From: Salinivirgaceae bacterium
GTDB taxonomy: Bacteria > Bacteroidota > Bacteroidia > Bacteroidales > SZUA-534
DNA length: 60,497 bases
Reading direction: 5' to 3'
Assembly (NCBI GenBank): GCA_016342715.1
Contig: JAEINW010000005.1
Span: forward strand, 1-60,497
The notes under the pieces are model-generated. The model saw only the letters and a list, made by a program, of their open reading frames with translations, made no database searches and was not told where the DNA came from. Made by a program: the position numbers and the translations under genes. Shown in pieces: positions 14,830 through 60,497 of the stretch (its first letter is position 1; the number at the start of each line of letters is the position of its first letter).

Positions 14830-17800
14830 TTATCTCACAACTACTTTTTGAGTAACTGTAAAATCTTTAAATATAATTTTAAGTATATATGTTCCGGGTT
14901 GGGAAACATAAACTTTCTGTAATGCACTGTTGTTGGTGTTTTTTGCATCAACCACTCTTCCTGAAATATCAAACGTTTGAATATAAGAATTGGTTCTATT
15001 AAATTCATTTGTTTTTATGAAAATAGTTTTTCCATAGGTATATATTAATAAATCGTTGATATTTTTATCTTCATCTAAGGAGAGCGCATTGGAAGTAAAG
15101 ATCATTGAAAATCGATCCAAGCAGTATCCAAAAGCATAATCACCAGCGTTTAAATATACATAGTACGATTTGCTTTTTAAATTGGTATAGGTATTTGTAA
15201 CATTGTCAAACAAATAAATGTAAATATTATCTGGAATATTTAATATTTCAGAAGCTGAAAAAATTATTTCTCCATCCTGTAATACTCGAACACCCATATT
15301 TACTGAAAAATCATTTTCAGAAAGATACGTAAGTTTGTCTGGATTATAAGTATCTATTGCTAATGCTGTATTTTCATCAGGCATGCTAAATATTTGAGCA
15401 GTGTTTTCATTGTTAGTGAATTTTTTATAGGCATCAAATTCAGAATCAAAATAATCTGTGGCTCCATCGTAAAACACAATAAACGCATTGGTTGTTGTAC
15501 CTTCTTTTTTTGCTTGCAAGCGAACCATTTGTTTTTCAGAATCGATACTTTTTCTAAAGTCCTGACTATTAGATGCACGAACGGCGTTGGTTGTTCCAAT
15601 AGTCCCATTTGCTGATGCATGAACGAAAAATCCTTGGCAAGCAGCAATGTATTTTGATCCATCTCCAGTACTTGTGGTTCTATTCCATGTTGTATAACCG
15701 CCGCTTGAAGAATTGTAATAATAGGCAGTGGCATCAACATTTGTTAATGTCCAACCGCTTGCTTCCCAGTCAATGGTGCATGGATAAGGGTTTCCAACTA
15801 AATTCCATCCATAAGCATCACCGGCTGAGGTGTTTGTTACACCAATGCTTTGTGAGCCAGTATTAAAAGTTCCGCTAAAAGAAAGTGTTTTGTTCGCTGT
15901 AAACCATATGCTTGTACCTTCCATTGCACTAATAGTTGTGCTACCTGTTATTGGTGCCCATGCTGGAGTAGTTTCATCCCACTCATCCCCAACGAGTCCA
16001 GAAAAAGTTGTTAACGATGTTGGAGAAGTTGGAAAACTTATTAAATGTTGTGGATGTGTTGCATTATAATTTATATATCTATTTAATGTTGAAGTTCCAG
16101 ATACGGAAAGAGTTCCTGTTCCGGGAATTACAATCATTCCACTTGGGCTTGCATCTGCTGAGGCTCCTAATGTCAAATCATTTGAAACAGACAAACTATT
16201 GCCATCAGCAATGTTTATATATGTGCCGGCCTGTAATACTGCATCATTACTCACAGTTAAAGTTCCACTATTAATATCAATATATGCTGTTCCAGCACCC
16301 GACTGAATTGTAAGGTCATTATTTACGATTAAACTTCCGCTGCTTATAGTAACATTTGCCCCATCTGCAATGGTTAAAAAATCAACAGTTTCTGTTCCCG
16401 TAATTATCGGGTCGTTCGTCACATCAGGAATGCTTACTGAATAATCACCCGTTGGAACTTGTGCGATACTCCAATTGGCCCCAGTTCCCCAATCGGTTTC
16501 AAAGCCAGAATATCCACCAATCCATGTAGCAGGACCAATTGTTGAAGTGGAATTTGGATTAGAAGAGGCCGTGGCTGTATAATATTTAGTATTCGAACCA
16601 GTGTTGTTGTATTCATAAACCCTAAAATGGTAGGCGGTTAATTGAGTAAGACCAGTAACTGTAACCGAAGTGCCAGATCCATTATAAACTACATAATTTC
16701 CAGTCCCAATTTGATCTCCTAATACATACACAGAATTTGCTGTATATGCATTGTTGTCTTGAGGATTTGCATCAACCGCAGCACCTTGTTTAACAAGAAC
16801 AATTCTATTTTCTCCATTACCATTGATCCACGATACTTGCATGGAGTTGGTTTTTTTGTTTGAAAATGAAATGGTGTGTGCTTGCCCTGTGGGTGCAGGT
16901 TTTAAAGTAAACGAACTATTAGGGTTGTCTGTTGCTGTAGCTGTATAATATGCCTCATTTCCATCAGCATTGTTGTATTCAAATACCTGAGCGTAGTACT
17001 CTATATTTTCGCTTAATCCTGTTACATTTACAGAGGTACCAGATCCATTATAAACAATATAATAGCCAGAAAGATCTCCAGGAATGAGTTGATCTCCACT
17101 ACCGAAAACTGTACTTGCATCATAGGTTTCATTATCTTCAGGATTTGAAATAGTTCCACTTCCTGCTTTTAATGCAACAATTCTCCTTGCTCCATTCCCA
17201 TTGGTCCAGTTTATGGTAAATGTAGTAGTACCAATGTTTGTAAAATTAATTGAACTGGCTTGTGTTGTGGGTGCGTCTTGAGCAGCTGTAGTTCTATTGA
17301 TACTAGGAGCACCTGTGAGAAGATAATTGTTTTTGCCACTATTGTATTCGTAAACTTTGAAATAATAGGTTGTTGATCCTTTTAACCCAGTTACAGAAAC
17401 GCTATTGCTGGTCCCATTGTAAACCACATAATTATTTGATCCAACAAGATCACCACTTCCAAATATGGAGCTTGCTGCATACGTTTCTGCATCCACGGGT
17501 TCCGATGAAATAGGTCCATCTTCACGCGCTACTACAATTCTATTATTTCCGTTCCCATTTGTCCAAAGTAAGTTAATCGAGGCTGAACCAACATCTGTAG
17601 ATGAAAAACTTGAGGCGGCAGTAGTAGGCTCGGCTGCAAGGGTTGTATCATTAGCTATAGATGAAGTCGTCAAAAATTTTGTATAGTCACCTGTATTATT
17701 GTATTCGAAAACTCTGAAAAAATATTCGCTCCCTGTACCTAGATTGGTCACATCAACGCTGGTGGCTGGGCCATCATATACAACACGACTACCTGACCCG

Positions 17801-20800
17801 ATATCAGTTCCTGAGCCAAATACAGAACTGGCAGTATAGCTACCCCCATCAGAAGGCACGTCTGTTATAGTAGATCCTAGTTTTCCAACAACTAAAATAT
17901 TATCCCCGTCACCCCTAGTCCAATGTACCGTATAAGAGTCTGTAGCATAATCATCAAAAAGAGTAATTGCTGCTTGAGATGTAGGTGGCCCTAAAATTGT
18001 TGTTGTTGTGTTTGGGTTGTTCCCAACGAAGCCGTCTATTTTATAATCTGAATCTACTCCTGAGTTTGAATATTCATATACTTTAAATGTGTATTGAGTA
18101 TCTTGGGTTAAACCAGTAACCGTTACCGTATTTGATGATCCATTATAAACCACATAATTGTCAGTTCCTATTTCAGTTTCGACTGTGCCAAAAGTTGCAT
18201 TTGCCGTATATGCTGTATTGTCAACCGGGTCAGCATCAACGCTTGCGCCTTGCTTGGCTAAAACAATTCTATTGCCAACCTGACCATTGGTCCAAGTTAA
18301 GGTTACCTGATTGCTTTGAAGGCTACTAAAAACAATGTTAGATGCTTGGGTTGATGGTTCACCAGAAAGCGTACTTTGATTATTTGGATTACCGGTAGCA
18401 GAAGCTGTCATGTAATTGATATCGGTTCCAGAATTATTGTATTCAAAAGTTCTAACATGATAATCAGTACCTGTAGTTAAAGCAGTAATATTTTCACTAG
18501 TACCTGAACCAATATATAAAACATAATTACCCGCACCAATTTGAGTTCCACCTTCAAAGACAGCATCTGCTGTATATGTTGTACCATCAACAGGAAAATC
18601 AGAAACTGCTGAACCCGATTTCGCTAAAACAATTATTCCATCACCATTACCTCTTGTCCAGCTTGTTGTAAAGGTTGTTGTAGCTAAGGAACTAAAAGCA
18701 ACATTTGTTGATTGAGTAGTTGGTTCCAGTTTTAATGTTGTTGAGTTTGCTGGATTTCCTAAACCTACACCGGTAAAATAGTTTTCAGATCCCAAGCTTC
18801 CATTAAATTCAAAAATTTCAACCCAATAAGTTGTATTTGCAGAAAGATTCGTTAGCGACACACTGCTTCCAGTACTATTATAAACCACATAGTAGCCAGA
18901 AGTTCCCAATTGATCTCCTTTTGTAGACCAATTATTGCTTGCCGTATAGGATGTTGCATCCACAGGATTCTCAATACTCCCTTGAGTTGATTGTCGAACA
19001 GCAACCAAACTATTAGTGCCATTGCCACCAGACCAGCTAATGGTCATTGAGGTAGTATTTACTGAAGTAAAAGCAATAGTATGGGCTTGTTCAGTTGGCT
19101 CTGTCATTAACGTAGTTTGACTTGTCGGGTTAGTACCTGCTCCAGAGGAGATAAGGTACTTAGTGTTTAAGCCAGAATTGTTATATGTGAAAGCTCTAAA
19201 AAAATATTCTGTATTATCTGAAAGTCCTAAAACTGTAACTGTTCCTGTGGCTCTAGCACCATCAAATACAATAAATTCTCCGGTTCCTAGAATATCTTGT
19301 CCATTATTAAAAGTGTTGTCATCATCATAGTCAGTGCCATCAGAAGGGACATCATTTATGGAACCACTTTCCTTTGCCACAATAATTACATTTTCTCCAT
19401 CTCCACCAGTCCAATTGACAACTATCGATGAGATTGTTGTTGTACCAAATGTAATGTCAGATACTTGAGTTGTTGGAGCAGTTGCAAGGGTTGTGGTACT
19501 TGCAGGGTTGCCAAAGCCATCTCCAGTAAAATAGTTTTGAGATCCTACGCTTCCATTAAATTCAAAAATTTCAACCCAATAAGTGGTGTTTACTGTAAGA
19601 TTGGTTAGAGAAACGCTGCTTCCAGTACTATTATAAACTACATAGTAGCCAGAAGTTCCCAATTGATCTCCTTTTGTAGACCAATTATTGCTTACAGTAT
19701 AGGAGGTGCCATCTGTTGGATCTTCTATTGTTCCCTGAGCCGCTTCTCGCACAGCAACTAAAGTGTTGCTTCCATTTCCACCAGACCAACCAATTGTCAT
19801 TGAAGTTGTATTTAAAGAAGAAAAAGCAATGGTGTGAGCTTGTTCTGTAGGCTCCGAGGCAAGGGTTGTAATGGAAGATGGGTTAACTGATGCAGTGACA
19901 TCGGAATATTTTGTATTTGATCCTGTATTGTTATATTCCACAACCTTAAAGTAGTATAAGGTTCCTGCATTTAATCCAGAAGTAGTAAAACCCGTTAATC
20001 CATCATCGGTACCATCATAAACTATTTTCACCCCACTATTAGTTGGCGCCAGTGTGTAGTCATTGTCAAAAGATGCTGAGTAATCATTTCCATCAAGGTC
20101 AATTGCTGCCGGAAAAGATGGCGATGTAGATGCCATACATATTCTTCTTGTACCATTACCGACCATCCATTTTACTAAAACGGAAGAACTTTGAACATTA
20201 TCGCTCAGATTTAAAGTATGAGCCTGTGTTGTTGGAGCAGCTGCTAGGGTAGTAGTACTTGCAGGGTTGCCAGAGCCACCACTACCTGTAAAATAGTTTT
20301 CGGTTCCTGAACTACCATTGAAATCAAATATTTCAACCCAATACGTTGTGTTTACACTAAGGTTTGAAAGTTCTACAGCACCGGTACTATTTGGTCCATT
20401 ATAAACGACATAATACTCTGAGATTCCAAGTTGGGATCCTTTAGAAGTCCAATTAGAGCTAGCTGTATAGGAAGATCCATCTATTGGATCTGTAATTGAC
20501 CCCTGTGTAGATTCTCGAACTGTCACCAGAGTGTTAGTGCCATTGCCCCCAGACCAATTAATGGTCATTGTTGTTGTGGCAATAGGGTCGAATGTAATTG
20601 TAGTGGTTTGAGTGGTTGGTTCCGAGGCAAGTGTTGTAACGGAAGATGGGTTAACTGATGCTATGGCATCGGAATATTTTGTATTCGATCCTGTGTTATT
20701 ATATTCCACAACCTTAAAGTAGTATAAGGTTCCAGGACTTAAGTTAGTGGTGGTAAATCCGGTTGTGCCATCATCAGTTCCATCATAAACAATTTTCACC

Positions 20801-22110
20801 CCATTATTTGCAGGCGCAAGGGCAAAGTTATTGTCAAAATCTGCTGAGTAATCATTTCCGTCAAGTAAAGATGCTGCCGGAAAAGATGGTGAAGTAGATG
20901 CCATACATATTCTTCTCGTACCATTACCGACCGTCCATTTTACTAAAACGGAAGAACTTTGAACATTATCGCTCAGATTTAAAGTATGAGCCTGTGTTGT
21001 TGGAGCAGCTGCTAGGGTAGCAATACTTGCAGGGTTGCCAGAGCCATCACCTGTAAAATAGTTTTGAGATCCTGCGCTCCCATTAAATTCAAAAATTTCT
21101 ACCCAATAAGTGGTATTTACTGTAAGATTGGTAAGAGAAACGCTGCTTCCAGTACCGTTGTAGATTAAGTAATAACCGGATTCGCCTAATGCATCTTCTT
21201 TGGCTGACCAATCGTTGTTTACAGTATAGGAAGTGCCATCTGTTGGATCTTCAATTGTTCCTTGAGCCGTTTCTCTAACTGCAACTAAAGTGTTGCTTCC
21301 ATTTCCTCCAGACCAACCAATAGTCATTGAGGTTGTATTTAAAGAAGAAAAAGCAATCGTGTGAGCTTGTTCTGTTGGTTCTGTACTAAGCATTATTGTG
21401 TCATTTATACTTTCTGTTGTCAGATAATCAACATTTGATACAGAGTTGTTATACTCAAATACTCTAAAATGGTAGGTGTTTCCTGCAAGTAAGTTGTCCA
21501 CATCAACTGATGTTGATGTACCATCGTAGAGTACAAAATTTCCAGTTCCAATTTGGCTGCCGCTTCCAAATGTGGGATTTGCTGTGTACGTGGTTCCATC
21601 CACAGGAAATGACGATACCGCAGCACCTTTTTTTGCTACTACTAAAATACTATCACCATTGCCACGAGTCCAGTTAGCTGTTAGTGTGGTTGTGGCAACC
21701 GAAGAAAAGTCATTAATAGTTGCCTGGCCGTCTGGTTCACCTTTTAAAGTTGTGAATGAACCACTTATTGATTCTTTTACGGGATTCGTTCCGCCGTTAA
21801 AAAACGTAGCTTTAAATTTGTAATAATACATTACCCCTGAACTTAAGCCAGTAGCTAAATAGTCAATTGTAAAATCATCACCAGTTGCGCTAACCCAATT
21901 GTATAATGGACTTGAAAAGTCTGAATCATCGTCAATGATTACTTTATGTTGATACACTAAGGCATATGAACTATTATCAACATCACCATGCAGTATTGCT
22001 GAACTAGCAGTAACTGTATTAAATGATAAATTTCCAATACTATCGGTTATTTGAGAAAAACTTATTATTGAGATTAATAATAATGATACAACGAATGCAA
22101 ACCTCTTCAT
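14830..22110 (-). CDS. Giant (2426 aa) secreted protein with about 14-15 tandem fibronectin-III-like modules and a T9SS C-terminal sorting domain
   Basis: Signal peptide; repeated (T/E)(P)TTQA...NWTGGNG...VVYNG...YYFKVYEYN modules; WIGGYSGFETDWGTGANWS domain; C-terminus QTFDISGRVVDAKN...YVSQPGTYILKIIFKDFTVTQKVVVR. Confidence 0.92.
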   Translation of the reverse strand: MKRFAFVVSLLLISIISFSQITDSIGNLSFNTVTASSAILHGDVDNSSYALVYQHKVIIDDDSDFSSPLYNWVSATGDDFTIDYLATGLSSGVMYYYKFKATFFNGGTNPVKESISGSFTTLKGEPDGQATINDFSSVATTTLTANWTRGNGDSILVVAKKGAAVSSFPVDGTTYTANPTFGSGSQIGTGNFVLYDGTSTSVDVDNLLAGNTYHFRVFEYNNSVSNVDYLTTESINDTIMLSTEPTEQAHTIAFSSLNTTSMTIGWSGGNGSNTLVAVRETAQGTIEDPTDGTSYTVNNDWSAKEDALGESGYYLIYNGTGSSVSLTNLTVNTTYWVEIFEFNGSAGSQNYFTGDGSGNPASIATLAAAPTTQAHTLNLSDNVQSSSVLVKWTVGNGTRRICMASTSPSFPAASLLDGNDYSADFDNNFALAPANNGVKIVYDGTDDGTTGFTTTNLSPGTLYYFKVVEYNNTGSNTKYSDAIASVNPSSVTTLASEPTTQTTTITFDPIATTTMTINWSGGNGTNTLVTVRESTQGSITDPIDGSSYTASSNWTSKGSQLGISEYYVVYNGPNSTGAVELSNLSVNTTYWVEIFDFNGSSGTENYFTGSGGSGNPASTTTLAAAPTTQAHTLNLSDNVQSSSVLVKWMVGNGTRRICMASTSPSFPAAIDLDGNDYSASFDNDYTLAPTNSGVKIVYDGTDDGLTGFTTSGLNAGTLYYFKVVEYNNTGSNTKYSDVTASVNPSSITTLASEPTEQAHTIAFSSLNTTSMTIGWSGGNGSNTLVAVREAAQGTIEDPTDGTSYTVSNNWSTKGDQLGTSGYYVVYNSTGSSVSLTNLTVNTTYWVEIFEFNGSVGSQNYFTGDGFGNPASTTTLATAPTTQVSDITFGTTTISSIVVNWTGGDGENVIIVAKESGSINDVPSDGTDYDDDNTFNNGQDILGTGEFIVFDGARATGTVTVLGLSDNTEYFFRAFTYNNSGLNTKYLISSGAGTNPTSQTTLMTEPTEQAHTIAFTSVNTTSMTISWSGGNGTNSLVAVRQSTQGSIENPVDATSYTASNNWSTKGDQLGTSGYYVVYNSTGSSVSLTNLSANTTYWVEIFEFNGSLGSENYFTGVGLGNPANSTTLKLEPTTQSTNVAFSSLATTTFTTSWTRGNGDGIIVLAKSGSAVSDFPVDGTTYTADAVFEGGTQIGAGNYVLYIGSGTSENITALTTGTDYHVRTFEYNNSGTDINYMTASATGNPNNQSTLSGEPSTQASNIVFSSLQSNQVTLTWTNGQVGNRIVLAKQGASVDADPVDNTAYTANATFGTVETEIGTDNYVVYNGSSNTVTVTGLTQDTQYTFKVYEYSNSGVDSDYKIDGFVGNNPNTTTTILGPPTSQAAITLFDDYATDSYTVHWTRGDGDNILVVGKLGSTITDVPSDGGSYTASSVFGSGTDIGSGSRVVYDGPATSVDVTNLGTGSEYFFRVFEYNNTGDYTKFLTTSSIANDTTLAAEPTTAASSFSSTDVGSASINLLWTNGNGNNRIVVAREDGPISSEPVDAETYAASSIFGSGDLVGSNNYVVYNGTSNSVSVTGLKGSTTYYFKVYEYNSGKNNYLLTGAPSINRTTAAQDAPTTQASSINFTNIGTTTFTINWTNGNGARRIVALKAGSGTISNPEDNETYDASTVFGSGDQLIPGDLSGYYIVYNGSGTSVNVTGLSENIEYYAQVFEYNNADGNEAYYTATATDNPNSSFTLKPAPTGQAHTISFSNKKTNSMQVSWINGNGENRIVLVKQGAAVDANPQDNNAYTANSVYVLGDQIGTGNYVVYNGSGTSVTVTGLTQLTAYHFRVYEYNNTGSNTKYYTATASSNPNSTSTIGPATWIGGYSGFETDWGTGANWSIAQVPTGDYSVSIPDVTNDPIITGTETVDFLTIADGANVTISSGSLIVNNDLTIQSGAGTAYIDINSGTLTVSNDAVLQAGTYINIADGNSLSVSNDLTLGASADASPSGMIVIPGTGTLSVSGTSTLNRYINYNATHPQHLISFPTSPTSLTTFSGLVGDEWDETTPAWAPITGSTTISAMEGTSIWFTANKTLSFSGTFNTGSQSIGVTNTSAGDAYGWNLVGNPYPCTIDWEASGWTLTNVDATAYYYNSSSGGYTTWNRTTSTGDGSKYIAACQGFFVHASANGTIGTTNAVRASNSQDFRKSIDSEKQMVRLQAKKEGTTTNAFIVFYDGATDYFDSEFDAYKKFTNNENTAQIFSMPDENTALAIDTYNPDKLTYLSENDFSVNMGVRVLQDGEIIFSASEILNIPDNIYIYLFDNVTNTYTNLKSKSYYVYLNAGDYAFGYCLDRFSMIFTSNALSLDEDKNINDLLIYTYGKTIFIKTNEFNRTNSYIQTFDISGRVVDAKNTNNSALQKVYVSQPGTYILKIIFKDFTVTQKVVVR
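16550..21830 (-). repeat. Tandem intragenic repeat of FN3-like modules with a 768-bp higher-order unit
   Basis: TGCCATACAT... begins at 20131 and again at 20899 (768 bp apart); about 80 bp identical around 20170-20250 and 20938-21019. Confidence 0.8.
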
Positions 22111-57096: not shown

Positions 57097-57430
57097 GTAG
57101 ACCTTTGTCTAAAGCAAGAAAATATGAAAAGTGGAGCTGTGGAGCTTTCTCCATTGTAAGAAAGAACGAAAGGTGAAGGCATGGATATTTGCCCATTGCA
57201 TCGGAATGACAAAGAAAGGCATGGAGATTTGTCCAAAGTAAGAAAGGATGACCGGTGGACTCGTGGAGATTTGTCCAAAGCAAGAAAGGACGAAAAGTGA
57301 AGGTATGGAGATTTGTCCATTGCATAGGAATGACAAAGAAAGACATGGAGATTTGTCCAAAGTAAGAAAGGACGACCGGTGGACTCGTGGAGTTTTGTCT
57401 AAAGCAAGTAAAAACTGAAAGTGGCGGTGT
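57097..57430. repeat. Minisatellite of 40/42-bp units with 124-bp higher-order period
   Basis: Unit starts at 57141, 57183, 57223, 57265, 57307, 57347, 57389 (GGAgatTTGTCCaaagyaagaaaggac...). Confidence 0.9.
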
Positions 57431-57553: not shown

Positions 57554-58000
57554 TTATAGCTCATCAATTTTTATTACTCCGTTACCATCAGTAAAATTGG
57601 AAGCGCTACTATAGTTACCTTCGGTGAGCTCGTAAACTCGGTTCCAGTGGTGAGGCTCCAAAACAAAACCAGATTCCACTGGATTGTAATGTATATAATC
57701 CAATTTTTGCTGAATTACATCAATGCTCCATAATTCAATCGGTTTATTGTGTTGTTGCCAAAACTGTCGCTTTTTAACATTACTATTCTTTCTACCTGCC
57801 CTTTCCATCATCCAAAGTAACCATTATTCGCAAAGCTCATGAGGGCTAAAGCCGTTCTTTTCTACTTTCTTGTGGATTCTCTTCAATCAGGCTTTGAAGT
57901 TTTTTGAAGTATGCGTCTTGAATTCACCTAATAATTTACTTGGGTTATTATTAAAATCTTTAAATATTAAGTGAACATGATTTGGTAAAATACAATAGGC
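57554..58000 (-). pseudogene. Truncated, frame-disrupted REP-associated tyrosine transposase (RAYT / Y1_Tnp)
   Basis: Minus-strand reading: ..YCILPNHVHLIFKDFNNNPSKLLGEFKTHTSKNF.. (HxH motif) then WMMERAGRKNSNVKKRQFWQQHNKPIELWSIDVIQQKLDYIHYNPVESGFV; 5' end replaced at the repeat junction. Confidence 0.85.
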
Positions 58001-58233: not shown

Positions 58234-59568
58234 TCAATGTTTTTTTATTTTATTTATTGTCTGTATAATTAACCATAAATTATTATAATCAACTTCATCA
58301 AATCTATCCCATACTTCTTTTGTTTTATTTTCTTGAGAATAATAAAAGTTATAATAATTAAAATAAATCCTTAAACCGAAATCATCAAAATCATAACCAT
58401 GCTTAGCAAAAATCATATTAGCTAATAATTTCAATTCGTAAGTTGTTAAACTTACCATATCATTAGCAAGCAACAATTTATTTGAAAATAATTTAAAATA
58501 TAAAAGCTCTAGCTCTGAATTTGGCTTATAAGCATACTTATAAAACTTATCGTTTAGTTTTACTTTAAAATAAATATTCTGAGTTTTTTTATTGCTTTCA
58601 TCATACCCAATTAACTTATATTTATTTTTACTTGAAGGAGCTAGTATTTCTTTGAATATCGTTGTATTTGCTATTTCCAATTTATCTTTATCAACAACAC
58701 AAGAAAACCTACTGTCTGCCAGTTTCTTTAAGGTATGTATAAACAACTTAGAATCATCTATACTAGAATGCATATAAAAAAAATTATACTCCAAGTTATT
58801 TACTCCTTTAAAGTTATATGTAATATCTTCTAGCTTATTCTTTTCAATATCATATAGGAAATAACTAAGGCTAGAATAGCCCCCTGCCCATTCTCCAAAT
58901 TCTAATATGTATTTATCTTCAAATAATCTATACCCTGACACAAATTCCTGTTCTGAATCTAACATATCTGACATTTGAAACAGAATATTAGTTTCATTTT
59001 TAGATAAATTAACTGATGAAATTGATTTATCCTTTTCGTTGAAATAATAAAAAATTGTATCTGCGTAGTAAAAAATACCATAAATAACATCTACAGGTGA
59101 CTTACTAACTTTACCCTTTAAAACTAGAGAATCTGATAGTTGATAAAAATAAGTAGAATCTTTACTTCCACTACAGAAAAATAAATTTCTATTATCAATA
59201 TACAATTTGTAAACACCCCCTTTAACAAGTTCTGGCTCCAAAGCATCAAGAATTACGTAATCAATAAATCTATTTGAATTCTCAATATTCTGTTTGAAGA
59301 CTTTTAAAGAAACAGAATCAATATGATACAAAAAACGAACGTTTTCATTAATTTCATCAACATTAATACCTATGCTAAAATCAAAAGATTTAATAAGGAA
59401 AGTGTCTATTAATTGCTTTTCTTCTGACTTTAATTCAATATCTACAACCGTATCACTTAGAATAATAAACTCCTTATTAGGAGCGACCTCTTTCGTTTTA
59501 GTTTGTTTAATAGAACATTCACAAAATAATAATGCCACTATAATAAAAAATAAATATCTTGTTTGCAT
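58234..59568 (-). CDS. Lipoprotein with C-terminal YARHG-like domain; candidate immunity protein
   Basis: Lipobox LLFCECS; LTTYELKLLANMIFAKHGYDFDDFGLRIYF; starts 2 bp after the upstream gene's stop. Confidence 0.6.
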   Translation of the reverse strand: MQTRYLFFIIVALLFCECSIKQTKTKEVAPNKEFIILSDTVVDIELKSEEKQLIDTFLIKSFDFSIGINVDEINENVRFLYHIDSVSLKVFKQNIENSNRFIDYVILDALEPELVKGGVYKLYIDNRNLFFCSGSKDSTYFYQLSDSLVLKGKVSKSPVDVIYGIFYYADTIFYYFNEKDKSISSVNLSKNETNILFQMSDMLDSEQEFVSGYRLFEDKYILEFGEWAGGYSSLSYFLYDIEKNKLEDITYNFKGVNNLEYNFFYMHSSIDDSKLFIHTLKKLADSRFSCVVDKDKLEIANTTIFKEILAPSSKNKYKLIGYDESNKKTQNIYFKVKLNDKFYKYAYKPNSELELLYFKLFSNKLLLANDMVSLTTYELKLLANMIFAKHGYDFDDFGLRIYFNYYNFYYSQENKTKEVWDRFDEVDYNNLWLIIQTINKIKKH

Positions 59569-59570
59569 CT

Positions 59571-60497
59571 TTATCTTAATTTTAATTCTGGTTCATTCAT
59601 TGGTTTATTTGGAATTTGACTTATTTCTTTAGGGGTCATTTTTTTAAGCGGGTTAGCTTTATACTCTAGTCTTTCTGATAAAGTTGGGAAAGATTCTATA
59701 AGAACAAAAGCTTGTAAATTTTTAATTTTTGCATCGGAATAAACGCCTCCTTCTCCCAATAATGGGAACTTGCCTACTTTAAGTCCTGCTTGTACAACGT
59801 TTCCAAAATTATATTCCATCTCATTCACCTCGATTGTTGATAGTTCATCAGTCGAAAGACCTGTAGTAATATGACCACTTGAACTGCTACCGGAATTCCA
59901 GGAATAATAAACCATTCCTCCTGCATTTACATAATTCCAAGATTCATTTAAAGAAACTTCATGAAATACGTCTGGATAACTATTCATTATTTCATTCATT
60001 GCATTCGCATTAACCCTATAATCAACCCCAGTTGATAATTGTTTATTCCCATCTTTATTTGTAAATAACTTATCTTCCCATGGATTACCGTATCCCATGC
60101 TATCAGTTAAATCATATCCAAATTGATTACACCAAGTTACACTTTTACCACTCTTTAGTTCATATGTTTCCTTTCTTACTGTTTCATCTAAAAAATCTCC
60201 TTTTGCAATATCAACTCTAATTTTTCCCCACATGAAATCTGTCTTTGCATTTTTAATTGGGATATAAGCATGGTTCGGTTGATAATAATCTTTTTGTGCC
60301 AGGCTTGAACCTCTTGAAGCCAATAATTTATCTCTACCTAAAATATTTGGTTTAGATTTATTATAATCAAGTCCTCTAGGGGTCATTTTCGTTAATGGTG
60401 CCAAAGCCTCTTCCAACCCATCTGTAAATAGCAAATTTAAAATCACCAATTTTTCGCAATTGGTTTTCACCACTTTTTCGCAAATGCAAATCACCAC
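59571..60497 (-). CDS. C-terminal part of a protein with CHAP/NlpC-P60-like cysteine peptidase (peptidoglycan amidase-like) domain; N-terminus outside window
   Basis: VTWCNQFGYDLTDSMGYGNPW...NANAMNEIMNSYPDVFHEVS...VNAGGMVYYSWNSGSSSSGHITTGL (Cys and His in the expected context). Confidence 0.6.
   Translation of the reverse strand: MVICICEKVVKTNCEKLVILNLLFTDGLEEALAPLTKMTPRGLDYNKSKPNILGRDKLLASRGSSLAQKDYYQPNHAYIPIKNAKTDFMWGKIRVDIAKGDFLDETVRKETYELKSGKSVTWCNQFGYDLTDSMGYGNPWEDKLFTNKDGNKQLSTGVDYRVNANAMNEIMNSYPDVFHEVSLNESWNYVNAGGMVYYSWNSGSSSSGHITTGLSTDELSTIEVNEMEYNFGNVVQAGLKVGKFPLLGEGGVYSDAKIKNLQAFVLIESFPTLSERLEYKANPLKKMTPKEISQIPNKPMNEPELKLR

What the first reader, a model, noticed from the sequence alone, without database searches (positions are those of the whole stretch)
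58234..60497. Candidate peptidoglycan-targeting toxin with a translationally coupled lipoprotein
Sequence: the right-edge ORF has a WCNQFGYD...GHITTGL arrangement like CHAP/NlpC-P60-type amidases, and its stop lies 2 bp before the start of a lipoprotein with a YARHG-like C-terminus. Established: immunity proteins to cell-wall-degrading effectors are commonly periplasmic lipoproteins encoded just downstream. Inference: this is a toxin/immunity pair and YARHG-like lipoproteins could be an under-described immunity class.
Basis: partly seen in the sequence, partly recalled or inferred. Interest (0 to 1): 0.72.

Follow-up and report, generated by a model that had tools for sequence, protein, structure and literature searches.

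The report
Orphan Rhs wall-cutting toxin with YARHG immunity
This is the tail end of a toxin gene that bacteria use against each other, predicted to cut the cell wall and lying beside the gene for its likely antidote; a mobile element has inserted right at the toxin's delivery boundary, and the antidote's YARHG domain, a domain with no known function, follows this kind of toxin in three different genomes.

Summary
In detail: a Cys/His domain (WCNQF...SGHI) ends 2 bp before a YARHG-domain, lipoprotein-like gene. The N-terminus was misread, because 60423-60497 is the end of an insertion sequence found at ten places in the genome. The real gene remnant is 59571-60422 and starts at the DGLE that closes an Rhs core. 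Contig C120 ends at what looks like the opposite IS end, in the same motif, after only ~55 codons of Rhs core. A 60%-identical relative (genome G102) has an Rhs core, the same C-terminal domain and, 1 bp downstream, a 55%-identical YARHG protein, inside an array of Rhs toxin/immunity cassettes. Two more distant homologues in G614, in a non-Rhs protein, are also each followed directly by a YARHG protein. Profiles chain the domain, weakly, to the peptidoglycan amidase Tse1/Tae1. Best reading: an orphan, IS-interrupted Rhs-CT cassette for a papain-like (NlpC/P60/Tae1-like) amidase toxin with its YARHG immunity protein. Most YARHG proteins (18 of 18 checked) have no toxin beside them, so YARHG is a module recruited into this immunity lineage and not an immunity class. 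No activity was tested, and structure prediction was uninformative.

The parts
59571..60422 (-). 3' remnant of an Rhs-type toxin gene: last residues of the Rhs core (DGLE) plus the C-terminal toxin domain, 283 codons + stop
   Evidence: the relative has the TIGR03696 Rhs core directly upstream
59571..60188 (-). predicted papain-like (NlpC/P60/Tae1-like) amidase domain; candidate catalytic Cys (60129-60131) and His (59871-59873), candidate third residue Gln in VVQAG (about 59790-59792)
   Evidence: Cys, His and Gln invariant in the window, G102 and one G614 homologue; Cys-Asn and Ser-Gly-His kept in all seven; remote link to Tse1/Tae1
58234..59568 (-). putative immunity lipoprotein (444 aa) with a C-terminal YARHG domain, translationally coupled (2-bp gap)
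   Evidence: adjacency conserved in G102 and at two G614 loci
58327..58491 (-). YARHG domain (protein residues 360-414)
   Evidence: Pfam PF13308 E=1.5e-8
60423..60497 (.). end of an insertion sequence (TGTAAATAGCAAATTTAAAATCACC...) interrupting the toxin gene and ending the contig
   Evidence: the same 75 bp at ten places, mostly contig ends; a different repeat, consistent with the opposite IS end, lies at the end of contig C120 inside an Rhs core stub

Best explanation
The two genes are an orphan Rhs C-terminal toxin/immunity cassette. The toxin domain is a papain-like cysteine amidase of the NlpC/P60/Tae1 kind. When fused to an intact Rhs core it would be delivered to a neighbouring bacterium and would cleave peptidoglycan peptides there, through a Cys-His(-Gln/Asn) centre. 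The secreted, probably lipid-anchored YARHG protein encoded directly downstream protects the producer in the periplasm, by binding the toxin, the wall, or both. In this genome the cassette has no full delivery gene: only ~55 codons of core precede it, and an IS sits at the core/toxin junction. It is therefore probably a silent reserve or decaying cassette in which only the immunity gene may still be useful. Shown: gene order, homology, Rhs fusion in the relative, IS interruption, recurrence of the YARHG partner. Inferred: toxicity, peptidoglycan target, protection, silence, and the pairing of the two contig ends.
For: The G102 relative has an Rhs_assc_core (TIGR03696, E=9.6e-21) ending directly before the homologous domain, and a YARHG protein starts 1 bp after the stop, inside an array of Rhs core/CT/immunity cassettes. 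The window remnant begins with DGLE, the end of the core. G614 has two loci in which a distant homologue (first locus: hhalign 96% probability, score 62.8 against a maximum of 22 in 100 shuffles) is immediately followed by a YARHG protein. Cys and SGH are invariant in seven homologues. One homologue (L094), and the seven-member profile that includes it, recover only Tse1/Tae1 entries at the top of the PDB search, E about 0.0035. A secreted immunity protein fits a periplasmic target.
Against: The Tae1 link is indirect: it disappears when L094 is left out, and neither the window domain alone nor the three-sequence profile hits Tse1. No Pfam or NCBIfam toxin or amidase family matches. AlphaFold models without an alignment are unusable (pLDDT 29.5 and 35.1). 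The lipobox is atypical. Pairing of the C120 and window flanks rests on matching position only; the flanks were not joined.
Confidence: 0.75

Rival explanations
1. The domain is an ordinary housekeeping or scavenging wall hydrolase, and the YARHG protein is an unrelated secreted neighbour.
For: NlpC/P60-type enzymes are common in cell-wall upkeep (general knowledge); YARHG proteins are common in Bacteroidia without toxins.
Against: Fusion to an Rhs core inside a cassette array in G102; the domain is very rare (G102 only, besides the window's own genome, among 197 relatives; no other genome among 392 of the class); the same neighbour recurs at distant loci.
Confidence: 0.05
2. The C-terminal domain is a papain-like toxin with a target other than peptidoglycan (protease, deamidase or transglutaminase-like), still neutralised by the YARHG protein.
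For: Cys-His papain-like toxins with several targets are listed among Rhs toxins (PMC3482391); the Tae1 link is remote and depends on one member.
Against: A secreted, probably periplasmic partner and remote similarity to Tse1 rather than to other papain-like enzymes in the PDB; YARHG is itself hypothesised to bind peptidoglycan (PMC3355149).
Confidence: 0.15
3. A qualification rather than an exclusive rival: the cassette is a decayed pseudogene with no current role. The IS insertion and core loss have killed the toxin, and both ORFs remain open only because the event is recent.
For: IS at the core/CT junction and only ~55 codons of core in C120.
Against: Both remaining ORFs are fully open and well conserved against G102; orphan Rhs cassettes elsewhere can be expressed and active (PMC3967940, abstract only).
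Confidence: 0.4

Closest known systems
Orphan Rhs-CT/immunity cassettes (e.g. Salmonella orphan rhs, PMC3967940; PMC3150448)
   Same: Toxin domain with only the end of an Rhs core, downstream immunity gene, cassettes arranged in arrays with partial cores (G102)
   Different: Here an IS also cuts the core/CT junction; Bacteroidota-type genome rather than Salmonella; a large (444-451 aa) secreted immunity protein
Tae1/Tse1 T6SS peptidoglycan amidase (catalytic Cys30-His91, PMC9270033) and its immunity protein Tai1
   Same: Remote profile match; Cys near the start, NAN motif, GH motif; immunity partner encoded with the toxin
   Different: Rhs-fused, with extra insertions; the partner has a YARHG domain and is about 440 aa; direct similarity of the window domain to Tse1 is not detectable
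Tox-NLPC/P60 toxin class of polymorphic toxins (PMC3482391)
   Same: Papain-like wall peptidase at the tip of Rhs proteins, reported from Bacteroidetes
   Different: That table lists no immunity partner for the class; here a recurring partner is seen. Membership in the same sequence clade was not tested
YARHG domain proteins (PF13308, PMC3355149)
   Same: Significant Pfam match, C-terminal position in a secreted protein
   Different: The YARHG paper mentions neither toxins nor immunity; here the protein is encoded directly downstream of an amidase-like toxin domain

Membership tests
Rhs polymorphic toxin | Rhs-associated core upstream of the C-terminal toxin | tested here: met
   Met in the relative (TIGR03696 E=9.6e-21). 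In the window only the terminal DGLE remains before the IS; a core stub lies at the end of C120
Rhs polymorphic toxin | Immunity gene directly downstream of the toxin domain | tested here: met
   Adjacency only: 2-bp gap here, 1 bp in G102; protective function not tested
Rhs polymorphic toxin | Complete Rhs shell and delivery region in the same gene | tested here: not met
   Interrupted by an IS; the C120 stub has ~55 core residues. Hence filed as an orphan cassette, not as a complete Rhs toxin
NlpC/P60-Tae1-like papain-fold amidase | Conserved Cys and His in the right order and context | tested here: met
   Cys-Asn and Ser-Gly-His invariant in 7 homologues
NlpC/P60-Tae1-like papain-fold amidase | Significant sequence or fold match to a solved or curated member | tested here: inconclusive
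   Tse1 at E=0.0035 with L094 or the 7-member profile; lost without L094; no Pfam hit; fold prediction failed
NlpC/P60-Tae1-like papain-fold amidase | Cleaves peptidoglycan | not testable with these tools
   needs a biochemical assay
YARHG domain protein | Pfam PF13308 above its gathering score | tested here: met
   34.9 bits against a cut-off of 27; G102 37.6; G614 36.4 and 36.8
Bacterial lipoprotein | Canonical lipobox with a small residue before Cys | tested here: inconclusive
   LFCEC / LFWEC: Cys conserved but Glu precedes it

The most novel reading that the evidence does not exclude
YARHG proteins encoded next to this amidase clade are a dedicated, so far undescribed immunity family in Bacteroidota, paired across Rhs and non-Rhs delivery architectures, with the YARHG domain as the constant, functional part. 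Its proposed affinity for peptidoglycan would let it guard the wall substrate or hold the inhibitor at the site of attack. This would give the YARHG domain its first concrete role.
Probability: 0.4. Interest if true: 0.62.

Novelty: new variant of a known kind. Interest (0 to 1): 0.45.

Why it matters
YARHG was described in 2012 as a domain 'in search of a function'. A recurring partnership with a wall-cutting amidase toxin gives a directly testable function, and a candidate partner for Rhs toxins of the Tox-NLPC/P60 kind, for which the main survey lists no immunity protein. It also gives a clear example of an orphan Rhs cassette cut by an IS exactly at the core/toxin junction.

Tried and rejected
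AlphaFold2 of each window protein without an alignment: pLDDT 29.5 and 35.1, not used for fold search. Plasmid and phage tblastn of the window and G614 domains: nothing; plasmid tblastn of the lipoprotein: nothing. Pfam, NCBIfam, PADLOC and PHROGs on the toxin: nothing significant. Rejected: YARHG as a general immunity class; homology between the N-terminal parts of the window and G614 YARHG proteins (score 14.6, within the shuffle range); weak A4 hits in G665, G1040, G597 and G098, which read as a Gfo/Idh-like oxidoreductase, a GH2-like hydrolase and repeat proteins. A reversed-sequence control alignment (A8) was made but not searched. The Tse1 sequence itself was not fetched for a direct comparison.

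Full report
What is there. The window is contig C278 of a 5.5-Mb, 358-contig genome. At its right edge two genes run leftwards: an ORF of 308 codons (59571-60497) and, 2 bp after its stop, a 444-codon ORF (58234-59568). The second has a signal-peptide-like start and a C-terminal YARHG domain (PF13308, E=1.5e-8).

The right edge is an insertion sequence. The last 75 bp (60423-60497) occur, 99-100% identical, at ten places in this genome, mostly at contig ends; in the eight separate places whose flanks were read, each copy starts at TGTAAATAG after a different flank. What remains of the gene is 59571-60422, beginning DGLEEALAPL. The IS family was not determined.

The lost side. A search of the same genome with the Rhs core of the relative described below found a stub on contig C120 (55 residues, 74% identity) that ends at ...DLDG, where a different 75-bp repeat starts; that repeat lies at nine places, again mostly contig ends. 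This is what the opposite end of the same IS would look like, in the same codon region. The two flanks were not joined, and their pairing is an inference. The stub has no complete Rhs core, and a thioredoxin-like gene lies just before it, so the cassette looks like an orphan even without the IS.

The relative. Of 197 related genomes, G102 alone (besides the window's own) holds a close homologue: 60% identity over residues 17-283. Its 494-aa ORF has the Rhs-associated core (TIGR03696, E=9.6e-21) at residues 148-230, followed by the same C-terminal domain. The next gene, 1 bp on, is a YARHG protein 55% identical to the window's. The locus is an array: a longer Rhs ORF with another C-terminus and a MORN-like partner (my reading; no Pfam hit), then this cassette, then a third C-terminus with an RDD-family neighbour, then a further partial core. 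This is the layout of Rhs orphan cassettes (PMC3150448, PMC3967940, abstracts only).

Distant partners. A profile of the two domains found one locus in G614 (E=1.1e-4), and a three-sequence profile found three more there. Two G614 loci keep the WCN...SGHIAT pattern at the end of a ~507-aa protein with an unrelated N-terminus. Both are followed directly (4-bp gap; 4-bp overlap) by proteins with a YARHG domain (E=5.1e-9 and 3.9e-9). The toxin homology is well above chance: hhalign score 62.8 against at most 22 in 100 column shuffles. Two further G614 loci and one in G331 carry more distant Cys/His domains (score 45.5 for the three together, against at most 22 in shuffles) followed by other secreted-looking proteins without YARHG. 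So the YARHG partner goes with the WCN subclade in at least two lineages (window/G102 and G614). At one to ten YARHG genes per about 4,000 genes (a rough estimate of mine), chance adjacency in two lineages is of order 1e-5 or less.

Not the other way round. Of 18 YARHG genes found elsewhere in the class with the lipoprotein profile, none has a recognisable toxin domain upstream, judged by reading the upstream ORFs. Only the last ~120 residues around YARHG are shared between the window and G614 partners; the N-terminal parts are not detectably related. YARHG is thus a reused module and not an immunity family by itself.

What the toxin domain is. Cys-Asn and Ser-Gly-His are invariant in all seven homologues, and Gln of QAG in the window, G102 and one G614 member. 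Searched against the PDB, the G331 member L094 and the seven-member profile rank eight Tse1/Tae1 sequences first (E about 0.0035). In that alignment the Tse1 GHVA motif, which I take to hold the published catalytic His91 (PMC9270033), lies opposite the SGHI motif; the aligned stretch starts just after Cys30. The link is carried by L094: without it no PDB hit remains, and the profile of L094 with its two nearest G614 relatives has none either. I therefore claim a papain-like, Tae1/NlpC-P60-like amidase as the most likely reading, not as proven membership.

Mechanism. Inferred: an Rhs protein carries the amidase to a neighbour's periplasm, the amidase cuts peptidoglycan stem peptides, and the secreted YARHG protein protects the producer. 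The 2012 proposal that YARHG binds peptidoglycan (PMC3355149) suggests a variant in which the immunity protein is held at, or shields, the substrate; nothing here separates that from simple cleft binding.

Novelty. The library has five papers that mention YARHG, and the polymorphic-toxin survey PMC3482391 is not among them. That survey lists Tox-NLPC/P60 with Rhs in Bacteroidetes and gives no immunity partner. I found no report of the pairing in this library, which lacks most subscription journals.

Noticed in passing
window 57104-57423: Tandem array (124-bp unit, 2.6 copies; inner period 42 bp) that reads as spurious ORFs, beside a short ORF at 57554-57811 that looks to me like a REP-associated transposase remnant (no Pfam hit).
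   Followed up: partly
G000:C153 (L016:1868-5686): The same genome holds a 1272-aa protein that reads as phospholipase-D-like plus Rhs-like parts, ending in an HNH-like WHHVVEQ C-terminus with a small downstream ORF: another likely polymorphic toxin.
   Followed up: no
G614 C1 near 97, 142, 175 and 282 kb (L065, L083, L092, L093): Four amidase/secreted-partner pairs; a helix-turn-helix gene lies near two of them and a CHC2-type primase near two: a possible mobile toxin family with exchangeable partners (YARHG or beta-propeller-like).
   Followed up: partly
L094:2392-4703: G331 lipoprotein-like protein with a Tse1-like C-terminal domain followed 2 bp later by a secreted protein: a candidate effector/immunity pair without an Rhs core.
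   Followed up: partly
L012:12610-14050: Third G102 cassette: Rhs core stub with an unknown C-terminus and an RDD-family membrane protein in the immunity position.
   Followed up: no
window 14830-22110: 2426-aa protein with many fibronectin III and purple-acid-phosphatase N-terminal-like repeats.
   Followed up: no
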